From Haloterrigena salina JCM 13891 (GTDB lineage: Archaea; Halobacteriota; Halobacteria; Halobacteriales; Natrialbaceae), in contig NZ_AOIS01000057.1 in the NCBI RefSeq assembly GCF_000337495.1, positions 84,664 to 148,663 of the forward strand: DNA of 64,000 nucleotides, in the 5' to 3' direction. A program made the translations under genes and the position numbers. Position 1 is the stretch's first letter, and each line of letters opens with the position of its first letter. This document shows, piece after piece, positions 3,009 through 59,620 of this stretch. The notes under the pieces are model-generated. The model ran no database searches. It was not told the DNA's origin and worked only from the letters and a program-made list of their open reading frames with translations.

Positions 3009-4238
3009 ATGGATTACAGACAGCTGTCCGATCCGAACGCAGAGTACACGATGCGAGACCTCTCCTCGGAGACGATGGAGATTACCAACTCTCGCGGGCC
3101 GCGCGACGTCGAGATCACGGACGTTCAGACGACCATCGTCGACGGGAACTACCCGTGGACGCTGGTCCGCGTGTACACCGACGCCGGCATCGTCGGCAAC
3201 GGCGAATCCTACTGGGGCGCGGGCGAACGGGAGATCATCGAGCGCATGGCGCCGTTCCTCGAGGGCGAAAACCCGCTCGACATCGACCGACTCTACGAGC
3301 ACCTCGTCCAGAAGCTCTCCGGCGAGGGATCGATCTCCGGCAAGGCGATTTCCGCGATTTCGGGCATCGAACTCGCGCTGCACGACGTCGCCGGCAAGAT
3401 CCTCGAGGTGCCGGCCTACCAGCTGCTGGGCGGCAAGTACCGCGACGAGATGCGGATGTACTGCGACTGCCACACTGAGGAGGAGGCCGACCCCGACGCC
3501 TGCGCCGACGAGGCTGAACGCGTCGTCGAGGACCTGGGTTACGACTCCCTGAAGTTCGACCTCGACGTTCCCTCGGGCCACGAGAAGGACCGCGCGAACC
3601 GCCACCTCCGGAACCCGGAGATCGAACACAAGGCCGAAATCGTCGAGAAGGTCACCGAGCGCGTCGGCGACCGCGCCGACGTCGCCTTCGACTGTCACTG
3701 GTCGTTCAGCGCCGGCAGCGCACACCGCCTCGCCGAGCGCTTAGAGGAGTACGACGTCTGGTGGCTCGAAGACCCGATCCCGCCGGAGAACCACGACGTG
3801 CAGGAGGAGGTCACCAAGCGGACGTCGACGCCGATCACGGTCGGCGAGAACGTCTACCGCAACCACGGCAACCGTCGCCTCCTCGAGAACCAGGCCGTCG
3901 ACATCGTCGCGCCCGACGTGCCTCGCGTCGGCGGCATGCGCCAGACGCGGAAGATCGCCGACCTCGCGGACATGTACTACGTGCCGGTCGCGATGCACAA
4001 CGTCTCCTCGCCGATCGGGACGATGGCGAGCATCCACGTCGGCGCGGCGATCCCGAACTCGCTGGCCGTCGAGTACCACTCCTACGAACTCGGCTGGTGG
4101 TCGGACCTCGTCGAGGAGGACATTATCGAGAACGGCTACGCCGAAGTGCCGGAGAAGCCGGGCCTCGGCCTCACGCTCGACCTCGACGCCGTCGAGGAGC
4201 ATCTGGCTGACGGCGCCGAGATGTTCGACGAGGCGTGA
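3009..4238 (+). CDS. xacD: Pentonate (xylonate/arabinonate) dehydratase, enolase superfamily, XacD-like
   Basis: A 409-residue mandelate racemase/muconate-lactonising enzyme homologue. The three barrel metal ligands are visible in VAFDCHW (Asp), WWLEDP (Glu) and TVGENVY (Glu), and the catalytic His is in AMHNVSS. The N-terminus (MDYRQLSDPNAEYTMRDLSSET) and much of the body match my recollection of Haloferax volcanii D-xylonate dehydratase XacD, which also fixes the start at 3009. The reaction is dehydration of D-xylonate or L-arabinonate to 2-keto-3-deoxypentonate in the cytoplasm. In Haloferax this is followed by XacE and XacF, both encoded within 5 kb here. It is preceded by the zinc dehydrogenase. 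Exact substrate preference is inference. Confidence 0.9.
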   Translation: MDYRQLSDPNAEYTMRDLSSETMEITNSRGPRDVEITDVQTTIVDGNYPWTLVRVYTDAGIVGNGESYWGAGEREIIERMAPFLEGENPLDIDRLYEHLVQKLSGEGSISGKAISAISGIELALHDVAGKILEVPAYQLLGGKYRDEMRMYCDCHTEEEADPDACADEAERVVEDLGYDSLKFDLDVPSGHEKDRANRHLRNPEIEHKAEIVEKVTERVGDRADVAFDCHWSFSAGSAHRLAERLEEYDVWWLEDPIPPENHDVQEEVTKRTSTPITVGENVYRNHGNRRLLENQAVDIVAPDVPRVGGMRQTRKIADLADMYYVPVAMHNVSSPIGTMASIHVGAAIPNSLAVEYHSYELGWWSDLVEEDIIENGYAEVPEKPGLGLTLDLDAVEEHLADGAEMFDEA

Positions 4239-31296: not shown

Positions 31297-32442
31297 CTAC
31301 GGCAGCACCGCGTCCGGGGTCCCGGTAAACGAGAGGTCCCGGTTCTTGATCGCGTCGCCGCCGGCGCCGTCGAAGAGGTGGATCGCCGGTTCGGGAAACT
31401 CGACGCCGACGCGGTCGCCGGCGCTCACGTTCGGAACGCCCTCGGTCGTCACGACGAACTCGTCGTCGACTGCCATGCCGTCGAACTGCAGGTGGATGAT
31501 GTTCTCGTTCCCCATCGGTTCGACGACGAGGACCTCGGCCTCGAACCGCCGGTCGCTCTGCTGGGCGTCGCCGATTCGGGCGTCCTCCGGCCGGATGCCG
31601 AGGACGAGATCGCCTCCCGACTCGAGGTCGCGGCGCGACTCCTGGGATAACGGATACTCGAAGTAGTCGGTGACGAGCGCGTCGTTCTCGAGCGTTCCGT
31701 CGAAGAAGTTCATCGACGGCTCACCGATGAAGCTCGCGACGAACAGGTTGTTCGGCTCGTGGTAACACTCGAGCGGGGTACCGACCTGCTGGAGTTCGCC
31801 CTCGTCGAGGACGGCGATCCGGTCGCCCATCGTCATCGCCTCCGTCTGATCGTGGGTCACGTAGACCGTCGTCACGTCCAGCTGTTCCTGCAGGTGCTGG
31901 AGCTCCGTTCGCATCTCGGCGCGCAGCTTCGCGTCGAGATTGGAGAGGGGCTCGTCCATGAGGAAGACGTCCGGGTCCCGAACGATGGCCCGGCCGAGTG
32001 CGACCCGCTGTTGCTGGCCGCCCGAGAGCTCGCCCGGTTTGCGGTCGAGCAAGTCCTCGATCCCCATCATCGCTGCCGTCTCTTCGACCGTCTCGGCGAT
32101 CGCGGAATCGGAGAGCTCCGTCGATTCCTCGAGCCCGAAGGACATGTTCGACCGGACGGTTTTGTGGGGGTACAGCGCGTATGACTGGAAGACCATCGCG
32201 ATGTCCCGCTCCTGTGCCGAGACGTCGTTTATCGTTCGGCCGCCGAGTCTGATCTCCCCCTCGGTGATCTCCTCGAGGCCGGCGATCATCCGCAGCGTCG
32301 TCGACTTCCCGCAGCCGGAGGGGCCGACGAGGACGAGGAAGTCCCCGTCGGGAACCTCGACGGCGATGTCCTGAACGGCAACGACGCTCGACTCTCCGCT
32401 CCGGTACTCCTTGGTTACGTCGTCGATTTCTAAGCGTGCCAT
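31297..32442 (-). CDS. xacK: Sugar ABC importer ATPase, XacK-like
   Basis: A 381-residue CUT1-type ATPase. Walker A GPSGCGKST, Q-loop VFQSYALYPHK, signature LSGGQQQR, Walker B VFLMDEPLSNLD and switch region VTHDQTEAM are all intact; a C-terminal TOBE domain carries GIRPEDA. It lies one base downstream of a second, homologous ATPase gene. Two adjacent ATPases in one importer operon is the organisation of the Haloferax XacGHIJK xylose/arabinose importer, where XacJ and XacK are the nucleotide-binding subunits. Which copy is J or K is assigned only by order. Confidence 0.86.
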   Translation of the reverse strand: MARLEIDDVTKEYRSGESSVVAVQDIAVEVPDGDFLVLVGPSGCGKSTTLRMIAGLEEITEGEIRLGGRTINDVSAQERDIAMVFQSYALYPHKTVRSNMSFGLEESTELSDSAIAETVEETAAMMGIEDLLDRKPGELSGGQQQRVALGRAIVRDPDVFLMDEPLSNLDAKLRAEMRTELQHLQEQLDVTTVYVTHDQTEAMTMGDRIAVLDEGELQQVGTPLECYHEPNNLFVASFIGEPSMNFFDGTLENDALVTDYFEYPLSQESRRDLESGGDLVLGIRPEDARIGDAQQSDRRFEAEVLVVEPMGNENIIHLQFDGMAVDDEFVVTTEGVPNVSAGDRVGVEFPEPAIHLFDGAGGDAIKNRDLSFTGTPDAVLP

Positions 32443-32443
32443 G

Positions 32444-33589
32444 TTAGATCGTGAGTTCGCGCGCGGTTTCGAGCCGCCGGTTGCAAAGCGCTTCGCCGGT
32501 TTCGCCGTCGAAGACGTGAACGGCGTCCGGTTCGACGGTGACGATGACCGACTCGCCGGCGTTGACGATGTGCATCCCGTCAGTGACGGCGCGGATGGTG
32601 TCGTGGCTGGCCTCGTCCTCGGCGTGCGTGAGGGTCACGACGTTCTGGTCGCCGTGGGTTTCGGTGACGGTGACGGTCATCCGGAACTCGTGCGGGCCGA
32701 GGCTCTGTGACGCCGATTCGCCGGCGTGGCGAACGTCGATCGCTTCGGGTCGAATCCCGAGGACGAGATCGGCGGCATCGCCGACGGCCCGCTCGAGTCG
32801 TTCGTCGAACGGATACTCGATGTATTCGCCGACGAACCCCTCCTCGGAACGATCCCCGTGGAGGAAGTTCATCATGGGCTCGCCGATGAAGCCGGCCACG
32901 AACTGGTTTTCGGGCGCGTGATAGAGCTCGAGCGGCTCGCCCACCTGCTGGAGCCGACCGTCGTTCAACACGGCGATCCGATCGCCCATCGTCATCGCTT
33001 CCGTCTGGTTGTGGGTCACGTAGACCGTCGTCACGTCCAGTTCCTCCTGCAGGCGCTGGAGTTCCGTCCGCATCTGGGTCCGGAGTTTGGCGTCGAGATT
33101 CGCGAGCGGCTCGTCCATCAGGAAAACCTCGGGATCGCGCACGATCGCTCGCCCGAGCGCGACCCGCTGTTGCTGGCCGCCCGAAAGCTCGCCCGGCTTG
33201 CGATCCAGCAGGTCGTCGATGCCAAGTGTCTCGGCGACGTCCTCGACTCGCTCGTCCCGCTCGGCCTCGGTGTACCCCGGTTCCTCTTCCAGACCGAACC
33301 GGATGTTCTCGCGGATAGTCATGTGCGGATAGAGGGCGTAATCCTGGAACACCATCGCGATATCGCGGTTCTGCGGAACGCGATAGTTCATGTGCTCGTC
33401 GGCGATGTAGAGGTCCCCGGACGTCGGCGTCTCGAGCCCTGCTAACATCCGCAGCGTCGTCGACTTCCCGCAGCCGGAGGGGCCGACCAACACGAGGAAT
33501 TCGCTGTCTTCGATGTCGAACGTCAGGTCTTCGACGGCGACCGTCTCGCCGAACTGCTTCGTCAGGTGGTCGAATTGGATTCGTCCCAT
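32444..33589 (-). CDS. xacJ: Sugar ABC importer ATPase, XacJ-like
   Basis: A 381-residue ATPase. Walker A GPSGCGKST, Q-loop VFQDYALYPHM, signature LSGGQQQR, Walker B VFLMDEPLANLD, a variant switch region VTHNQTEAM (Asn where most have Asp) and a C-terminal TOBE domain. The start at 33589 lies three bases after the preceding permease stop, so the genes are tightly packed. With the XacK-like neighbour it probably forms a heterodimeric ATPase for pentose import. Confidence 0.86.
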   Translation of the reverse strand: MGRIQFDHLTKQFGETVAVEDLTFDIEDSEFLVLVGPSGCGKSTTLRMLAGLETPTSGDLYIADEHMNYRVPQNRDIAMVFQDYALYPHMTIRENIRFGLEEEPGYTEAERDERVEDVAETLGIDDLLDRKPGELSGGQQQRVALGRAIVRDPEVFLMDEPLANLDAKLRTQMRTELQRLQEELDVTTVYVTHNQTEAMTMGDRIAVLNDGRLQQVGEPLELYHAPENQFVAGFIGEPMMNFLHGDRSEEGFVGEYIEYPFDERLERAVGDAADLVLGIRPEAIDVRHAGESASQSLGPHEFRMTVTVTETHGDQNVVTLTHAEDEASHDTIRAVTDGMHIVNAGESVIVTVEPDAVHVFDGETGEALCNRRLETARELTI

Positions 33590-53149: not shown

Positions 53150-53271
53150 CCGGTTGTTGTTACATCGGACTAAACGGGATGAGAGTGACATTCGTACCGT
53201 CTTATTCATTCCTTCAGTCGTGAGAAAGTTTATTAATTGAGATGTTGATGCTGCGTGTATCGGGAGAGATA

Positions 53272-55107
53272 ATGACACACGAGGACCAGTCTGCGGACCG
53301 GGACGACGGCAGGGACGCGAGTAGCGAGTACGAGGACGGAACGCCGCGGCGTCGGTTTCTCGCGACCGGCGGAACGCTCGCGATAGCGGCGGCGCTCGGA
53401 ACCGGGTCGACGACCGCCCGGACGACATCGGAAACGACGGCCTCCCGAGCGCCGAAAACGATGGACCAGTTCGAGGACGCCGTCGAGAAGACGGTCGCGC
53501 GCGCTCGAGCGGTGATCGACGACGGCCCGTTCGATCCGGAGTGGGGCTCTCTCGCCGACGTGACGCAGGTCCCCGAGTGGTTCCGCGACGGCAAGTTCGG
53601 CATCTTCTGTCACTGGGGGCCGTACTCGGTGCCCGCGTACGCACACGAGTGGTACCCTCGCCAGATGTACAACACCGACAACGAGATCAACGACTACCAC
53701 CGCGAGACGTACGGCGAACCGGACGAACACCCCTACCAGGAGTTCGTCCCCGAGTTCACCGCCGAGGCGTTCGACGCCGACGAGTGGGCGGCGCTCTTCG
53801 AACGGGCGGGGGCCAGATACGCCGGACCGGTCGTCGAACACCACGACGGCTGGTCGCTGTGGGACTCCGACGTCACCCCGTGGAACGCCGCCGATACCGG
53901 GCCCGAACGGGATCTGGCCGGCGAACTCGAGTCGGCGATCCGGACGCAGGGCATGCGGTTCGTGACGACGTTCCACCACTCGTACAACCTGATCGGCGAG
54001 GACGGCTACTTCTCGTTCGCCTACGAGAACTACCCGTCGGTCACCGAGGGCTACCCCGACCGCGTGCTGTACGGCAACCTGCCCGAGACGCTGCAGTTCG
54101 ATACGTGGCTGGCGAAACTCGTCGAAGTGGTCGAGGGGTACGACCCCGACTTCGTCTGGTTCGACTGGGGGCTCCCCGAGATCCCCGAGGAGTACCAGCG
54201 ACAGTTCCTGGCGTACTACCACAACGTGGCCGCGAGGCGTGGGAAGGAGGTCGTCACGACGAACAAGGAGGACGCGTTGCCCCTCGAGTCGAGCGTCGCC
54301 GACTTCGAACTCGGACGGCCGCGTCACACCCAGGAACAGGCCTGGAACGCCGAGTTCAAGGTCGCCGACGAGGGCGGGTGGGGGTACGTCGAGGACCGCA
54401 CGTTCCACTCCCCGACGCGCCTGATTCACGTCCTGATCGACGTCGTCAGCAAGAACGGCCAGCTGCTGTTGAGCGTCGGACCGCGCGTCGACGGCACCGT
54501 CGAACGCGAGGAGCGCGAGCGACTGCTCGCGATCGGCGACTGGCTCGACATCCACGGCGAAGCGATCTACGAGACCCGTCCGTGGGACGCGTTCGGCGAG
54601 GGACCGACCCGCCTCGAGGAGGGCGGCGAGTTCATCGAGGACGTCGAGTACGGCCCGTCGGACGTGCGATACACCCGGTCGAAAGACGGGAGTACGGTGT
54701 ACGCCATCGTCATGGGCTGGCCCGGCGCCGGCGAATTCGTCCTCGAGGGGATGACCGTCGATCACCCTTCGGCGGCCCCCGGAACGCCGCCGGGCCACGG
54801 CGGCTCACTGCCGGGGTGTACTGAGCCATCGGGCCGCGATCAGGGACCGCCGGGCCACGGCGGCTCACTGCCGGGGTGTACTGAGCCATCGGGCCGCGAT
54901 CAGGGACCGCCGGGAAAGCGGCGGGGAACGGCGATCGGTTCGATTCGGCTGCTCGGGCACGGACCGGTCCCGTTCGCCGTCTCGGCGGACAGCCGCCCGG
55001 TGATCGACGTGCCAGACCTCGCCGAGTCGGCGCGCCCGAGCAACGTGGCCGTCGCGTTCGCGCTCGAGGGGTTCGACCTCGAGCCCTCAGAGAACGCCCA
55101 CCGATAA
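53272..55107 (+). CDS. GH29 alpha-L-fucosidase, Tat-exported, with internal tandem repeat
   Basis: A 611-residue secreted enzyme. Twin-Arg leader PRRRFLATGGTLAIAAALG (about residues 25-43). The GH29 barrel has WFRDGKFGIFCHWGPYSVPAYAHEWY, the HHDGWSLWDS strand, and the probable nucleophile Asp in DFVWFDWGLPE. It removes alpha-linked fucose from plant glycans outside the cell. The C-terminal domain contains two perfect copies of a 20-residue Pro/Gly-rich unit encoded at 54787-54914. The start at 53272 (MTHEDQ) fits a TATA box at 53227-53238; 53242 is too close. Confidence 0.9.
   Translation: MTHEDQSADRDDGRDASSEYEDGTPRRRFLATGGTLAIAAALGTGSTTARTTSETTASRAPKTMDQFEDAVEKTVARARAVIDDGPFDPEWGSLADVTQVPEWFRDGKFGIFCHWGPYSVPAYAHEWYPRQMYNTDNEINDYHRETYGEPDEHPYQEFVPEFTAEAFDADEWAALFERAGARYAGPVVEHHDGWSLWDSDVTPWNAADTGPERDLAGELESAIRTQGMRFVTTFHHSYNLIGEDGYFSFAYENYPSVTEGYPDRVLYGNLPETLQFDTWLAKLVEVVEGYDPDFVWFDWGLPEIPEEYQRQFLAYYHNVAARRGKEVVTTNKEDALPLESSVADFELGRPRHTQEQAWNAEFKVADEGGWGYVEDRTFHSPTRLIHVLIDVVSKNGQLLLSVGPRVDGTVEREERERLLAIGDWLDIHGEAIYETRPWDAFGEGPTRLEEGGEFIEDVEYGPSDVRYTRSKDGSTVYAIVMGWPGAGEFVLEGMTVDHPSAAPGTPPGHGGSLPGCTEPSGRDQGPPGHGGSLPGCTEPSGRDQGPPGKRRGTAIGSIRLLGHGPVPFAVSADSRPVIDVPDLAESARPSNVAVAFALEGFDLEPSENAHR
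54787..54914 (+). repeat. Perfect 60-bp tandem duplication inside GH29
   Basis: Two identical 60-base copies (54787-54846, 54847-54906) plus the first eight bases of a third, in frame. Each encodes PPGHGGSLPGCTEPSGRDQG. Each copy contains an inverted pair GGCTCA...TGAGCC. Confidence 0.95.
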
Positions 55108-55119
55108 GCCCCGCAGAGC

Positions 55120-55989
55120 ATGAAAACCGTCGATACGCACACCCACGTGTGGGGCGAGCCGACCGACGAACTCCCCTGGGTCGCGAACGTGTTGCCGCCC
55201 GGGTGGACGGGGGCGTACACGCACCGCGACCTCGTCGCGGACATGGACGCCGCGGGGGTCGACGAGGCCGTCGTCGTCACGACGCCGCTGTACGGCCGCG
55301 GCGTGCGGGCTAACGAGTACACGATGCGATCGATCGAGGCCCACCCCGACCGCCTCTACGGCGTCGGCCTGCTCGAGTTCTTCCGGTCGGACCCGGAAGC
55401 GATCGTCTCCGCCCTGAAACGCGTCACGGGCCACCCGCGGATGCTCGGCGTTCGCATGCACGCCGCCCACGAGTACGAGGCGATTCCGACGACCGTCGAT
55501 CGCTGCGGTGACTGGATCCTCGACGAGCGCCTCGAACCGGTCTGGCGGGCGGCCGGCGACCTCGAGACCTGCGTCTTCGTCTTCCCGAAGGCCCAGCAAC
55601 TCGGGCACCTCGCGACGCTCGCCGACCGCTATCCGGAGACGACCGTCGTCGTCGATCACATGGCCTGGCCCGACGAGACCACGGATCCCGACGAGGAGCC
55701 ATGGACCGAGTTCGAAACACTCGCCGAGTACGAGAACGTTGCCGTCAAGTTGAGTTCGCTGCCCCGATCGGCGACCGAGCCCTGGCCGTACGAGGACCTG
55801 CACGGTTACGTGACGAACCTCGTCGAGTGGTTCGGTCCCGAACGACTGCTACTCGGCTCGGACTACCCCTGGATGGACGACTGGGCCGCCTACGACGACT
55901 GCCTCTCGTGGCTCGAGACGGTCGAGACCCTCTCGCGGCGCGATCGGGCGTTCATCTCGCACCGGACGTTCGAGCGCCTCCGCGGCTGA
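55120..55989 (+). CDS. Amidohydrolase-family lactonase (fuconolactonase-like)
   Basis: A 289-residue TIM-barrel metal hydrolase of the amidohydrolase_2 family. It begins VDTHTHVWG (metal-ligand His pair), has the VVVDHMAWP strand and ends with LLLGSDYPW (catalytic Asp). The family contains L-fuconolactonase and 2-pyrone-4,6-dicarboxylate hydrolase. Twelve bases separate it from GH29, so cotranscription is likely and fuconolactone or rhamnonolactone hydrolysis is a reasonable inference. Other aldonolactones are possible. Confidence 0.82.
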   Translation: MKTVDTHTHVWGEPTDELPWVANVLPPGWTGAYTHRDLVADMDAAGVDEAVVVTTPLYGRGVRANEYTMRSIEAHPDRLYGVGLLEFFRSDPEAIVSALKRVTGHPRMLGVRMHAAHEYEAIPTTVDRCGDWILDERLEPVWRAAGDLETCVFVFPKAQQLGHLATLADRYPETTVVVDHMAWPDETTDPDEEPWTEFETLAEYENVAVKLSSLPRSATEPWPYEDLHGYVTNLVEWFGPERLLLGSDYPWMDDWAAYDDCLSWLETVETLSRRDRAFISHRTFERLRG

Positions 55990-55996
55990 TTAGGGG

Positions 55997-56335
55997 CTAC
56001 GGTTCGAACGACCAGATCTCCTCCATGTAGGGGATCTGGTCGCCGGCAGCGGCGTCGGCGTCAACGCCGTCGCGTTTGAACCGCGCCACGCGGCGCTCCC
56101 ACGCCTCGACGGCCGGATCGTTCGCCATCACCTCGTCGTAGGCGTCCACGTCCGGACACTCGAGGAGACAGACTGCGATATCGTCGCGAACGAACAGCTG
56201 AAACGTCTCGACGCCGGCGCGCTCCATCGCGTCGGTGACGCCGTCAGGCACGTCGTCGTGGGCCTCGACGTACTCCGCCGTTCGCTCCGGATCGATTCGC
56301 TGGACGTAGACCGCTCGCTCCAGTTCGTCGGCCAT
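55997..56335 (-). CDS. L-rhamnose/L-fucose mutarotase (RhaM-like)
   Basis: A 112-residue ferredoxin-like alpha/beta-barrel protein of the RhaM/FucU-related DUF718 family. It has AVYVQRIDPERTAEYVEAHD, the VETFQLFVRDDIAVCLLE strand and the C-terminal EEIWSFEP. It interconverts sugar anomers. The start at 56335 (MADELERAVYV) matches family N-termini; the extension to 56458 overlaps the next gene. Its presence supports a deoxy-hexose role for this block. Confidence 0.82.
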   Translation of the reverse strand: MADELERAVYVQRIDPERTAEYVEAHDDVPDGVTDAMERAGVETFQLFVRDDIAVCLLECPDVDAYDEVMANDPAVEAWERRVARFKRDGVDADAAAGDQIPYMEEIWSFEP

Positions 56336-56451
56336 ACGAAACGTCTCGACGGCTACCGACACAAAGCTTTGCCAGCGTCGTGAGAGCGACCGTCGGTCCC
56401 GCGGTCGGCACATCCGTTCTCCCGTCGCGGACGCGCGGTCGTCGGTCGGGC

Positions 56452-57549
56452 TTACCACGAAGTGACGCGGACGTCGCGGAGCGGCCGGGCCAGGGGAATC
56501 TCGACCTGCCCGCCAGTGTGGTGTGAGAGGTAGAGACCGATGATGATCTCGAGGCTACGCGTCGCCTCCTCGCCCGCCGACCGGTTCGCCGCGCGTCCCT
56601 CAAGGACGTCGACGACGTGTGCGGCCGCGTTGCTGAACGCCCGTTCGTAGTCGTCCTCCCAGGTCCACGCGCCGTCGATGCCGGGCAGCGGTTCCTCGAC
56701 GTGCTCGCCGTCGTCGAGTCGCCAGTAGCGCCACTCGCCGTCGTCGTTGTTCAGGTACAGTTTCCCCTCGCTGCCGATGAACTGGAGCGTCATCGACGAA
56801 CTGTCGCGGGGAATCGTACAGTCGACGGTGACGAACGTGCCGTCGTCCATGACGACGAAGCCGCCGCCGCCGGCGTCGTCGACCCGCGTGCCGGCCTCGA
56901 GGCTCTCGACCGCCTCGTTCTCGCCGGTGATGTGCCCCGAAACGGTCTCGGCGCGAGCGTCGAGGAGGTAGACGAGCGTATCGAGCAGGTGCGTGGCGTT
57001 TCGAAGCAACTCCATGCGGAACTGCATCGCCACCGACTGGGGGTCGCCGAGGAGCCGCTCCTCCTGGACGAGCGTTCGAAGCTGCCGGAGCTTGTCGGTA
57101 AACCGAAACGAGTGGTTGACGACCAGTTCCGTCCCCGTCTCCGCGCAAACGTCGACCATCTCGCGGGCGGCGGTGACGTCGGTCGCGATCGGTTTCTCAC
57201 ACCAGATCAGCTCGGGGTCCGCGGCCGATCGAGCGGCGTCGACGACGTGTCGGTGATGGAGGGACGACGGCGTACAGACCGAGACGACGTCGAGCGACTC
57301 CGACTCAAGCATCGCCTCGTGGCCGACGTACCGCCGGTCCGGATCGATCCCCCACGCCTCGCCGAACCGCTCGAGTTTCGCCGCCTCGACGTCGGCGCCG
57401 GCGACGAGATCGATCTCGGCTTGCGCGTCGAAGCCACCGGCGTGACTGGCCGTGATCTTCTCGCGGCCGATCCGCTCCTCGTCGTGCATCCCGAGGATCC
57501 CCATGCCGGCGATGCCGCCGGTTCCGATGATGCCTGCAGTGTACGTCAT
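56452..57549 (-). CDS. Gfo/Idh/MocA-family sugar dehydrogenase
   Basis: A 365-residue NAD(P)-dependent oxidoreductase with GTGGIAGMG (about residues 10-18), the catalytic EKPI motif and HSFRFTDKL. It is distinct from the XacA-type gene at 29473-30546. It probably oxidises a sugar or inositol-like substrate, perhaps fucose or rhamnose. Its ATG lies six bases after the stop of the deleted dehydratase gene, so both belong to one minus-strand unit with the mutarotase. Confidence 0.87.
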   Translation of the reverse strand: MTYTAGIIGTGGIAGMGILGMHDEERIGREKITASHAGGFDAQAEIDLVAGADVEAAKLERFGEAWGIDPDRRYVGHEAMLESESLDVVSVCTPSSLHHRHVVDAARSAADPELIWCEKPIATDVTAAREMVDVCAETGTELVVNHSFRFTDKLRQLRTLVQEERLLGDPQSVAMQFRMELLRNATHLLDTLVYLLDARAETVSGHITGENEAVESLEAGTRVDDAGGGGFVVMDDGTFVTVDCTIPRDSSSMTLQFIGSEGKLYLNNDDGEWRYWRLDDGEHVEEPLPGIDGAWTWEDDYERAFSNAAAHVVDVLEGRAANRSAGEEATRSLEIIIGLYLSHHTGGQVEIPLARPLRDVRVTSW

Positions 57550-57555
57550 CGGAGA

Positions 57556-57984
57556 TCACTCGTAGACGTGCAGGTCGCCGGTCCGATGCTCCTCGACGTA
57601 CACCCAGTCGTAGTCGACGCCGAGGCCCGGCCCGTCGTAGTGTTTCCCCGCGAAGTCCCACAGCGCGATGTCGATCGGTCCGATGCCCATCCGGTCGTCC
57701 TTCCGGAGCGCCCGCTTGATCTCGCTCCAGTGTTTCTCGCGCTCGAGCAGGTTCTCGCCGACGAGGTAGTCGGCGAACATGTTGATCTGGGCCGCGCCGG
57801 GCGAGTTCCCCCCGACGTACTCGCCGGTGAGTCCGGCGTCGGTGTGGATTTTGATCCCGAACAGCTTCCGCCGCGTCGTCTCCCCGGGTTCGGAGACGAG
57901 ATTGAAACCCTTCCGATCGGTCCCGACATCCTCGAGCGGGTACTGAAACTCGCAGCTCTCGATTCGCGTTATCGTCGGCGCCAT
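57556..57984 (-). pseudogene. Internally deleted enolase-superfamily sugar-acid dehydratase
   Basis: Only 142 codons in one frame. Residues 1 to about 117 form the complete N-terminal capping domain (MAPTITRIESCEFQYPLEDV... PIDIALWDFAGKHYD). The last ~25 residues (PGLGVDYDWVYVEEHRTGDL) match the extreme C-terminus of the same family. The barrel between them, about 260-270 residues with all metal ligands and catalytic bases, is missing. Full homologues, recalled as L-fuconate/galactonate-type dehydratases, have about 400 residues. The in-frame join means no frameshift or stop, but the product cannot be a dehydratase. It is the first of the genes sharing a strand with the Gfo/Idh gene. Confidence 0.82.
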
Positions 57985-58651
57985 ACGAGCCGTCCAACGA
58001 CCAGCACCATAAGTTTCCCTGAGACGGAACGCTCACGGAAAGAATGGCGCACTGCGGGGTAGTGAACGCTCGCGTTACGTAGTGATGAACGTCCCCACCC
58101 GCGGATTCGCGCGACCGAGAGGGGACGAACCGGTCAACGTACGCGCTCGGCCTGCAGAAACGCCGCTCGGCAATCCGTTCGTCCCTCGGGATCGTAAATC
58201 GATTCCCAGTACGAGAGCCGTTAGCGCGGCCGATGAGAGAGATCCGTGAACCAGAGCCATTCAACGATGATGAACGCATCGTACAACCCAGTGCTAGGAT
58301 CGAACGCGTCGCTCCGTCCGTGCGCTTTGCGACGCCTGCCGAGTATCGGCGCATCTGTTACAACAGTATGGTTGTAATAGTGTGCGAAAAGGTACCGAGA
58401 CTTCGGGCGAGGAACCGACGTGATCCCGTCGTCGCACCGACGATCGACGAACCGGCGAGACGACCGCGTTTATCGATGATGAACGCCGGGGCTCGCAGTT
58501 CGTTGACCGGTACTCGACGCGGCCGTATTCGGTCTCGTCGCCGGAAACGGGCCGAGAACCGGATAGGGCGGGAGACAAGACGAGATCAGATAAGACGAGT
58601 CGGGACGAAACGAGACCTCGTCCCGTCGGCCGCGACGAGATCGGTTCGACG
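57985..58651. other. Intergenic region
   Basis: 667 bases with no convincing gene; the ORF at 58233-58784 is Arg/Ser-rich and has no domain. A short AT-rich stretch at 58355-58385 could be a promoter. Nothing else seen. Confidence 0.45.
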
Positions 58652-59620
58652 CTACTCCGCCCAGAAGGCGTCGTCCGGCGTCGACTCGAAGATCGCGCGG
58701 TCGAGAACGTCGATCCCCTTCCCGAGTCCCTCTCTGGCCGACGTGAGCGAGTCCTCGTGTTCGATCGAGAGCGCGCCGTCGTAGTCGACCAGTCGAAGGG
58801 CGGAGACGACGTCCTTCCAGAAGTTCTCGCCGTGGCCGTAGCCGATCGACCGGAAAAGCCACGAGCGCTCGGCTTCCTCGGTGTACGGTGCCGTATCGAG
58901 GACGCCCTTCTCGCGGGCGTTGTGATCGTAGACTTTCGTGTCCTTCGCGTGGACGTGGTGGATCGCGTCGCGGTTCCCGAGCAGTCGGATCGCCTCGGTG
59001 ACGGAGATCCCCTGCCAGAGCAGATGCGACGGGTCGAAGTTCGCGCCGATCCGGTCGTCGGTCAGTTCGCGCAGTCGGAGCAGCCCGCGGGGTTCGTACA
59101 CGAGCATGTTTGGATGCATCTCGATCGCGACGTTCACGTCGTGATCGTCGGCGAAACCAGCCATCTCGGTCCAGTACGCCTCGGCGACGTCCCATTGATA
59201 CTCGTGAGCGTCCCGGTGTTCGCCCGGCCACGGCGCGGTGATCCAGTTCGGAACCTCGTCGTTCGGTCCGCCGGCCGGAAGCCCCGAGAACGTCGTCACG
59301 GTGTCGACGCCGAGTTGCGACGCGAGGCGGATCGCGCCGCGGAGTTCCCGGTCGGCCCCCCGTGAGCGGTCGTCGACGGGGTGAAGCGGGTTGTTGTGGG
59401 TGGCGAGCGCCGAGATGTACAACCCGTGTTCCTCGAGGCGGTCCTGCAGTTCCGCTTGCGCGTCGGGATCGTCGAGGTACTCGTCCTGCGGGAGGTGATC
59501 GTCGCCGACGAAGCCGCCGCAGGCCAGTTCGACCGCGTCGACGCCCCGCTCCGAGAGGTACGCGAACGCGTCCGCGAGCGATTCGTCCGAAATCGACGTC
59601 GTGAGGACTCCGGTGTCCAT
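58652..59620 (-). CDS. Sugar phosphate isomerase/epimerase-like TIM-barrel protein
   Basis: A 322-residue xylose-isomerase-like (AP endonuclease 2 fold) protein. Metal-ligand-type motifs are VNVAIEMHPN (Glu, His), NFDPSHLLWQG (Asp, His), HHVHAKDTKV (His) and LSIEHED (Glu). Family members isomerise or epimerise keto sugars, or act in inositol and sugar catabolism. It is the last gene of the right-hand importer operon (64 bases after the permease stop), so it probably acts on the imported sugar. Confidence 0.87.
   Translation of the reverse strand: MDTGVLTTSISDESLADAFAYLSERGVDAVELACGGFVGDDHLPQDEYLDDPDAQAELQDRLEEHGLYISALATHNNPLHPVDDRSRGADRELRGAIRLASQLGVDTVTTFSGLPAGGPNDEVPNWITAPWPGEHRDAHEYQWDVAEAYWTEMAGFADDHDVNVAIEMHPNMLVYEPRGLLRLRELTDDRIGANFDPSHLLWQGISVTEAIRLLGNRDAIHHVHAKDTKVYDHNAREKGVLDTAPYTEEAERSWLFRSIGYGHGENFWKDVVSALRLVDYDGALSIEHEDSLTSAREGLGKGIDVLDRAIFESTPDDAFWAE

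What the first reader, a model, noticed from the sequence alone, without database searches (positions are those of the whole stretch)
57556..57984. In-frame deletion joins both ends of an enolase-superfamily dehydratase and removes its whole catalytic barrel
The 142-codon frame has the family N-terminal capping domain up to ALWDFAGKHYD and then jumps to a C-terminal PGLGVDYDWVYVEEH ending, with about 260-270 residues missing and no frameshift. It sits in an intact unit with a Gfo/Idh dehydrogenase and a RhaM-like mutarotase, so the fuconate/rhamnonate dehydration step may be lost or rerouted to another dehydratase, or the cap domain may have been kept for another use. Short GACG/GG identities at the likely junction suggest microhomology deletion.
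Basis: partly seen in the sequence, partly recalled or inferred. Interest (0 to 1): 0.72.

Follow-up and report, generated by a model that had tools for sequence, protein, structure and literature searches.

The report
Sugar-acid dehydratase gutted in frame
A sugar-degradation enzyme gene in a salt-loving archaeon has lost its whole catalytic core, its sister lineage lost the same gene through different deletions, and each time the reading frame survived, most likely so that the next gene on the same messenger can still be translated.

Summary
The 142-codon frame (minus strand, 57984-57556) is an internal in-frame remnant of a 391-residue mandelate-racemase/muconate-lactonizing (MR/MLE, enolase-superfamily) dehydratase. 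Codons 118-366 are missing (249 codons, 747 bp, not 260-270). Intact orthologues sit in the same gene order in Natrialba asiatica and on a Halosolutus plasmid. The missing barrel is nowhere else in the assembly.

All three deletions keep frame. No other short form was seen among the listed matches from 392 genomes of the order, so this is parallel loss, not a conserved 140-residue family.

Best mechanism: the dehydratase was lost twice while its neighbours stayed under selection. The frame survived because the remnant is the first, probably leaderless cistron and its stop lies 6 nt before the Gfo/Idh start, a spacing that permits termination-reinitiation coupling in Haloferax. The coupling step is inferred. 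Chance frame retention is a serious rival; a retained cap-only protein is less likely. A chromosomal paralogue has an 81%-identical barrel but a different cap loop, so redundancy is unproven.

The parts
57556..57984 (-). 142-codon remnant of an MR/MLE-family dehydratase: codons 1-117 and 367-391 of a 391-residue protein
57633..57637 (-). deletion junction with CGACG microhomology; 747 bp missing
   Evidence: alignment to Halosolutus L088 and Natrialba L014
58008..58013 (-). TATA-like element (CTTATG here; TTTATG in G001/BOL5-1; TTTATA in Halosolutus and Natrialba) 24-29 nt before the remnant's ATG
   Evidence: TTTAW starts at -31 to -29 in 27 of 49 intact homologues and almost nowhere else in the 120 nt upstream
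57550..57555 (-). 6-nt gap between the remnant's stop codon and the Gfo/Idh start codon
   Evidence: same spacing in BOL5-1, Halosolutus and Natrialba
56452..57549 (-). Gfo/Idh/MocA dehydrogenase, intact, strongly conserved (dN/dS 0.07 against G001); proposed beneficiary of the kept frame
55997..56338 (-). L-rhamnose-mutarotase-like protein (rhaM), intact
55120..55989 (+). amidohydrolase; weak similarity to L-fucono-1,5-lactonase, below its cut-off
53242..55107 (+). alpha-L-fucosidase
58652..59620 (-). xylose-isomerase-like TIM-barrel protein (sugar phosphate isomerase/epimerase), neighbour upstream
57985..58651 (.). spacer used as the neutral comparison: five single-base indels and 73/662 substitutions against G001

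Best explanation
The frame is what is left of a cluster-encoded sugar-acid dehydratase whose catalytic barrel was cut out by an in-frame deletion, so this protein cannot be a dehydratase (shown). The same gene was lost in the sister lineage through two other in-frame deletions (different breakpoints shown; independence inferred from them). The rest of the sugar cluster stays under selection (shown). The reading frame most likely survived because the remnant is the first cistron of the Gfo/Idh messenger, probably leaderless, and ribosomes that finish it re-initiate at the Gfo/Idh start 6 nt further on. Losses that shift the frame or end it early would have silenced that neighbour; in-frame losses do not (inferred). 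The dehydration step, if still needed, is probably taken by another MR/MLE enzyme of the genome, with the C34 paralogue as first candidate (inferred).
For: Intact orthologue in the same gene order in two other genera. Offset of exactly 747 bp; sister remnant with 231 and 495 bp offsets, present in two assemblies, one a complete plasmid. Three of three deletions in frame, and no frameshift in the shared parts against five single-base indels in the adjacent spacer (combined p about 0.02). Raised N:S in the remnant, 8:4 against 93:271 in nine neighbours (Fisher p=0.004), and dN/dS 0.08 for the same codons between intact genes. Stop-start gap of +6 nt, inside the -8 to +6 range held to allow efficient termination-reinitiation in Haloferax (PMC10666635); premature upstream stops abolished downstream translation in nine of nine pairs there (PMC6728339). 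TATA-like element at fixed distance from the dehydratase start across homologues. Missing barrel absent from the genome, paralogue barrel present.
Against: The frame statistics rest on three deletions and five indels. Coupling was measured in Haloferax on gene pairs that overlap or are 1 nt apart, not on this pair; whether Gfo/Idh can also start on its own is unknown. Total divergence of the remnant is lower than that of the spacer (12/345 vs 73/662, p=2e-5), and G001 vs BOL5-1 shows little sign of relaxed constraint, so some constraint on the protein itself is not excluded. The paralogue differs in its cap loop, so it may not act on the same substrate.
Confidence: 0.55

Rival explanations
1. 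An ordinary decaying pseudogene: the dehydratase became dispensable twice, the three deletions are in frame by luck, and the frame has no role.
For: Chance of three in-frame deletions is 1 in 27, not tiny. N:S is raised, and the window remnant has changes at otherwise nearly invariant sites (Y31S, P79L, Y96D, I379V).
Against: No frameshift or stop in either remnant while the adjacent spacer has five single-base indels. Remnant divergence is well below that of the spacer, although recent loss would explain that too.
Confidence: 0.3
2. A retained small protein: the cap domain, with both of its sequence segments joined, is kept for a new role such as binding or regulation.
For: The window deletion leaves both segments of the cap, and AlphaFold with the family alignment predicts a cap fold (pLDDT 80). 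Divergence is lower than in the spacer.
Against: The sister remnant lacks the last cap helix and keeps a barrel segment instead, so no shared architecture. No such short form was seen elsewhere in the order. N:S is raised. Invariant residues are lost. The fold prediction is driven by the intact relatives in the alignment.
Confidence: 0.12
3. An assembly error that dropped the middle of an intact gene.
For: The window's genome is a 71-contig draft; reads are not available here.
Against: The missing barrel is on no other contig. The two parental sites share only 5-10 bp. The retained part has its own changes at nearly invariant sites. The sister lineage shows loss of the same gene in two assemblies, one a complete plasmid.
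Confidence: 0.03

Closest known systems
MR/MLE-family sugar-acid dehydratases of the enolase superfamily (PF02746 + PF13378); nearest solved structures by sequence 1RVK, 4HCD, 4MMW; intact orthologue WP_247004382.1 of Halosolutus
   Same: Cap-domain sequence, C-terminal segment, gene neighbourhood and promoter position
   Different: The whole barrel with all metal-binding and catalytic residues is missing, so it is a relic of the family and not a working member
Termination-reinitiation-coupled gene pairs of Haloferax volcanii (PMC6728339, PMC10666635)
   Same: Co-directed pair with a stop-start gap (+6 nt) in the permissive range, in a haloarchaeon
   Different: The upstream partner is a broken gene, and coupling has not been measured here
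Pseudogenes made by microhomology deletion
   Same: Short identity at the junction, loss of the catalytic part, raised amino-acid change
   Different: Frame kept in three of three deletions in two lineages, next to a gene under selection

Membership tests
MR/MLE-family dehydratase | N-terminal capping domain (PF02746) | tested here: met
   27 bits against a cut-off of 22
MR/MLE-family dehydratase | (beta/alpha)-barrel with metal ligands and catalytic residues (PF13378) | tested here: not met
   codons 118-366 deleted; model of the intact protein places the barrel there
L-fuconate / L-rhamnonate dehydratase (intact ancestor) | passes a curated equivalog model | tested here: not met
   best NCBIfam hits far below cut-offs, e.g. 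L-rhamnonate dehydratase 75 vs 393 bits
L-fuconate / L-rhamnonate dehydratase (intact ancestor) | activity on that substrate | not testable with these tools
   neighbourhood only
Termination-reinitiation-coupled pair | stop-start distance in the range that permits coupling (-8 to +6 nt in H. volcanii) | tested here: met
   +6 nt (PMC10666635)
Termination-reinitiation-coupled pair | downstream translation depends on upstream translation | not testable with these tools
   needs a reporter assay
Termination-reinitiation-coupled pair | Shine-Dalgarno motif near the end of the upstream gene | tested here: inconclusive
   GTGATC overlaps the stop codon (sequence) and could pair with the 16S 3' end as known from haloarchaea; that rRNA was not checked in this genome
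Conserved stand-alone small protein family | same short architecture in several lineages | tested here: not met
   sister remnant built differently; no others of this length among listed matches in 392 genomes
Conserved stand-alone small protein family | purifying selection on the protein | tested here: inconclusive
   constraint weaker than in intact genes but divergence below the spacer

The most novel reading that the evidence does not exclude
Dead enzyme genes in haloarchaeal operons are kept as open frames because ribosomes must run through them to reach the next gene. Gene loss is then channelled into in-frame deletions, and this locus, hit by different deletions in two sister lineages, is a natural example.
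Probability: 0.4. Interest if true: 0.55.

Novelty: new member of a known kind. Interest (0 to 1): 0.36.

Why it matters
It shows parallel loss of one step in an otherwise conserved, selected sugar cluster. It also offers a small natural test of whether translational coupling, so far shown with reporters in Haloferax, shapes how genes are lost. If frame-keeping loss proves general upstream of coupled genes, annotation should read such short fusions as cis-acting leaders rather than as new small proteins. The cluster without its dehydratase also points to an enzyme elsewhere in the genome that may have taken over.

Tried and rejected
Conserved 140-residue family: not found. Missing barrel on another contig: absent. 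Gene conversion from the paralogue as source of the sister remnant's middle: that segment aligns about as well to cluster-type orthologues, so not pursued. One ancestral deletion shared by both lineages: not excluded for codons about 194-358, but the breakpoints differ, and the branch to H. salifodinae has 0-1 amino-acid changes where about 9 are expected under neutrality; two losses preferred. Sigma-70 promoter scan: uninformative for archaea. Junction search in viral contigs: no match. Paper searches for haloarchaeal L-fucose or L-rhamnose pathways gave nothing directly on this cluster. The first alignment for folding had its reference one codon off; it was remade and not used.

Full report
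CHECK OF THE OBSERVATION. The ORF 57984-57556 (minus strand) is 142 codons with the MR_MLE N-terminal domain over Pfam's cut-off and no barrel domain. The same cluster with a full-length dehydratase exists in Natrialba asiatica (L014: binding protein, two permeases, TIM barrel, dehydratase, Gfo/Idh, rhaM, amidohydrolase, fucosidase in the same order) and on a Halosolutus gelatinilyticus plasmid (L088). Aligned to these, the window frame keeps codons 1-117 and 367-391 of 391 and lacks 249 codons, 747 bp. The junction falls in CGACG, common to both parental sites. The AlphaFold model of the intact protein puts the barrel inside the deleted stretch; the kept segments belong to the capping domain. 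Modelled with the family alignment, the remnant still predicts as a cap (pLDDT 80) and matches caps of solved enolase-superfamily enzymes. That is expected from the alignment and is no evidence of function.

IS IT AN ASSEMBLY ERROR? Unlikely. The missing barrel is nowhere else in the 4.84-Mb draft; the only close barrel is the C34 paralogue at 81%. The retained part has its own changes at sites that are otherwise nearly invariant (Y31S, P79L, Y96D, I379V: 4 of 59 such sites, where most intact homologues have 0-2). Reads were not available.

A SECOND, DIFFERENT REMNANT. Genome G001 of the same genus holds a 149-codon remnant at the syntenic place (16 kb aligned at 94.5%). It joins codons 1-89, about 168-193 and about 359-391, through deletions of 231 and 495 bp. 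The complete plasmid pHTS280.6 of Haloterrigena salifodinae BOL5-1 has the same junctions and is 98.5% identical to G001 there. No CDS is listed at that place in the PLSDB gene table, which omits pseudogenes. Each remnant holds segments the other lacks, so at least part of the loss was independent. The other four genomes of the genus have no match to this Gfo/Idh gene at the stringency used. Among the listed matches from 392 genomes of the order only these two have frames this short (the list was cut, so weaker matches were not seen).

SELECTION. Between the window and G001, nine neighbouring genes have dN/dS of 0.03-0.23. In the 114 codons shared by both remnants there are 8 nonsynonymous and 4 synonymous changes, against 93 and 271 in those neighbours (Fisher p=0.004). 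The same codons give 0.08 between the intact Halosolutus and Natrialba genes. Constraint is therefore weaker than in an intact gene. But it was not absent for the whole period: total divergence is 12/345 against 73/662 in the adjacent spacer (p=2e-5), and G001 and BOL5-1 differ at 7/450 against 30/680 (p=0.01). I read this as loss well after the species split, with more decay in the window's lineage; residual constraint on the protein is the alternative. The branch to H. salifodinae shows 0-1 amino-acid changes where about 9 would be expected without constraint, which favours a working gene at the split and two losses. These estimates use few changes and a neutral rate borrowed from neighbours.

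WHY IN FRAME? Deletions of 747, 231 and 495 bp are all multiples of three (1/27 by chance). The shared parts have no frameshift, although the next 667 bp of spacer carry five single-base indels between the same genomes. Together p is about 0.02: suggestive, no more. A cis reason is at hand. The remnant's stop is 6 nt before the Gfo/Idh start, as in Natrialba, Halosolutus and BOL5-1. In Haloferax volcanii, gaps from -8 to +6 nt are held to allow efficient termination-reinitiation; 13-14 nt already lowered it to 40-60% or so, and 22-23 nt abolished it (PMC10666635). Premature stops upstream abolished downstream translation in nine of nine pairs (PMC6728339). A TATA-like element at a fixed place about 24-31 nt before the dehydratase start is conserved among homologues whose upstream DNA otherwise differs. 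That fits a leaderless transcript, the kind that makes up 72% of protein-coding transcripts in Haloferax (PMC4983044). So the remnant is probably the first cistron, and Gfo/Idh is fed by ribosomes leaving it. A frame-breaking loss would also silence Gfo/Idh, which is under strong selection; an in-frame loss would not. The coupling itself is inferred, not shown.

WHAT REPLACES THE ENZYME? The genome has 13 matches to the MR/MLE C-terminal domain. The closest to this one is on C34, in a different setting near an FtsZ-like gene (neighbours judged by eye from translations), with the barrel motifs intact. Its cap loop (EYVLVTSTAPDQ) differs from that of cluster-type enzymes (EYVGGNSPGAAQ). In this superfamily the cap loops help set substrate choice (general knowledge, not tested here), so replacement is plausible but unproven. 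The substrate is not established either: the intact orthologue passes no NCBIfam equivalog cut-off. Fucosidase, lactonase-like and mutarotase neighbours only suggest a deoxyhexonate.

VERDICT. It is a real, twice-evolved gene loss, ordinary in kind, with a testable and moderately interesting reason for the preserved frame.

Noticed in passing
54787-54906: Exact 60-bp tandem duplication, in frame, in a Gly/Pro-rich stretch of the alpha-L-fucosidase; G001, BOL5-1 and Halosolutus have one copy.
   Followed up: partly
58008-58013: The TATA-like element is CTTATG in the window but TTTATG in G001/BOL5-1 and TTTATA in Halosolutus and Natrialba: possible weakening of the remnant's promoter.
   Followed up: partly
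L080:9601-10776 (G000 contig C34): Paralogous dehydratase with a barrel like the cluster type but a very different cap loop (EYVLVTSTAPDQ, 38% over residues 35-66 against 80% in the barrel); the same loop type occurs in L051, L070 and L077. Possible cap exchange between subfamilies.
   Followed up: partly
3009-4238: Another, intact MR/MLE-family dehydratase in the window, next to a zinc-alcohol-dehydrogenase-like gene and a GntP-type transporter: a separate sugar-acid cluster.
   Followed up: partly
48181: Synteny with G001 stops near here on the left side of the cluster: possible edge of a rearrangement or island.
   Followed up: no
31297-33589: Two tandem 381-aa ORFs whose DNA resembles the cluster's ABC-transporter ATPase gene of G001 (70-72% identity): a tandem duplicate of sugar-ABC ATPases.
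   Followed up: no
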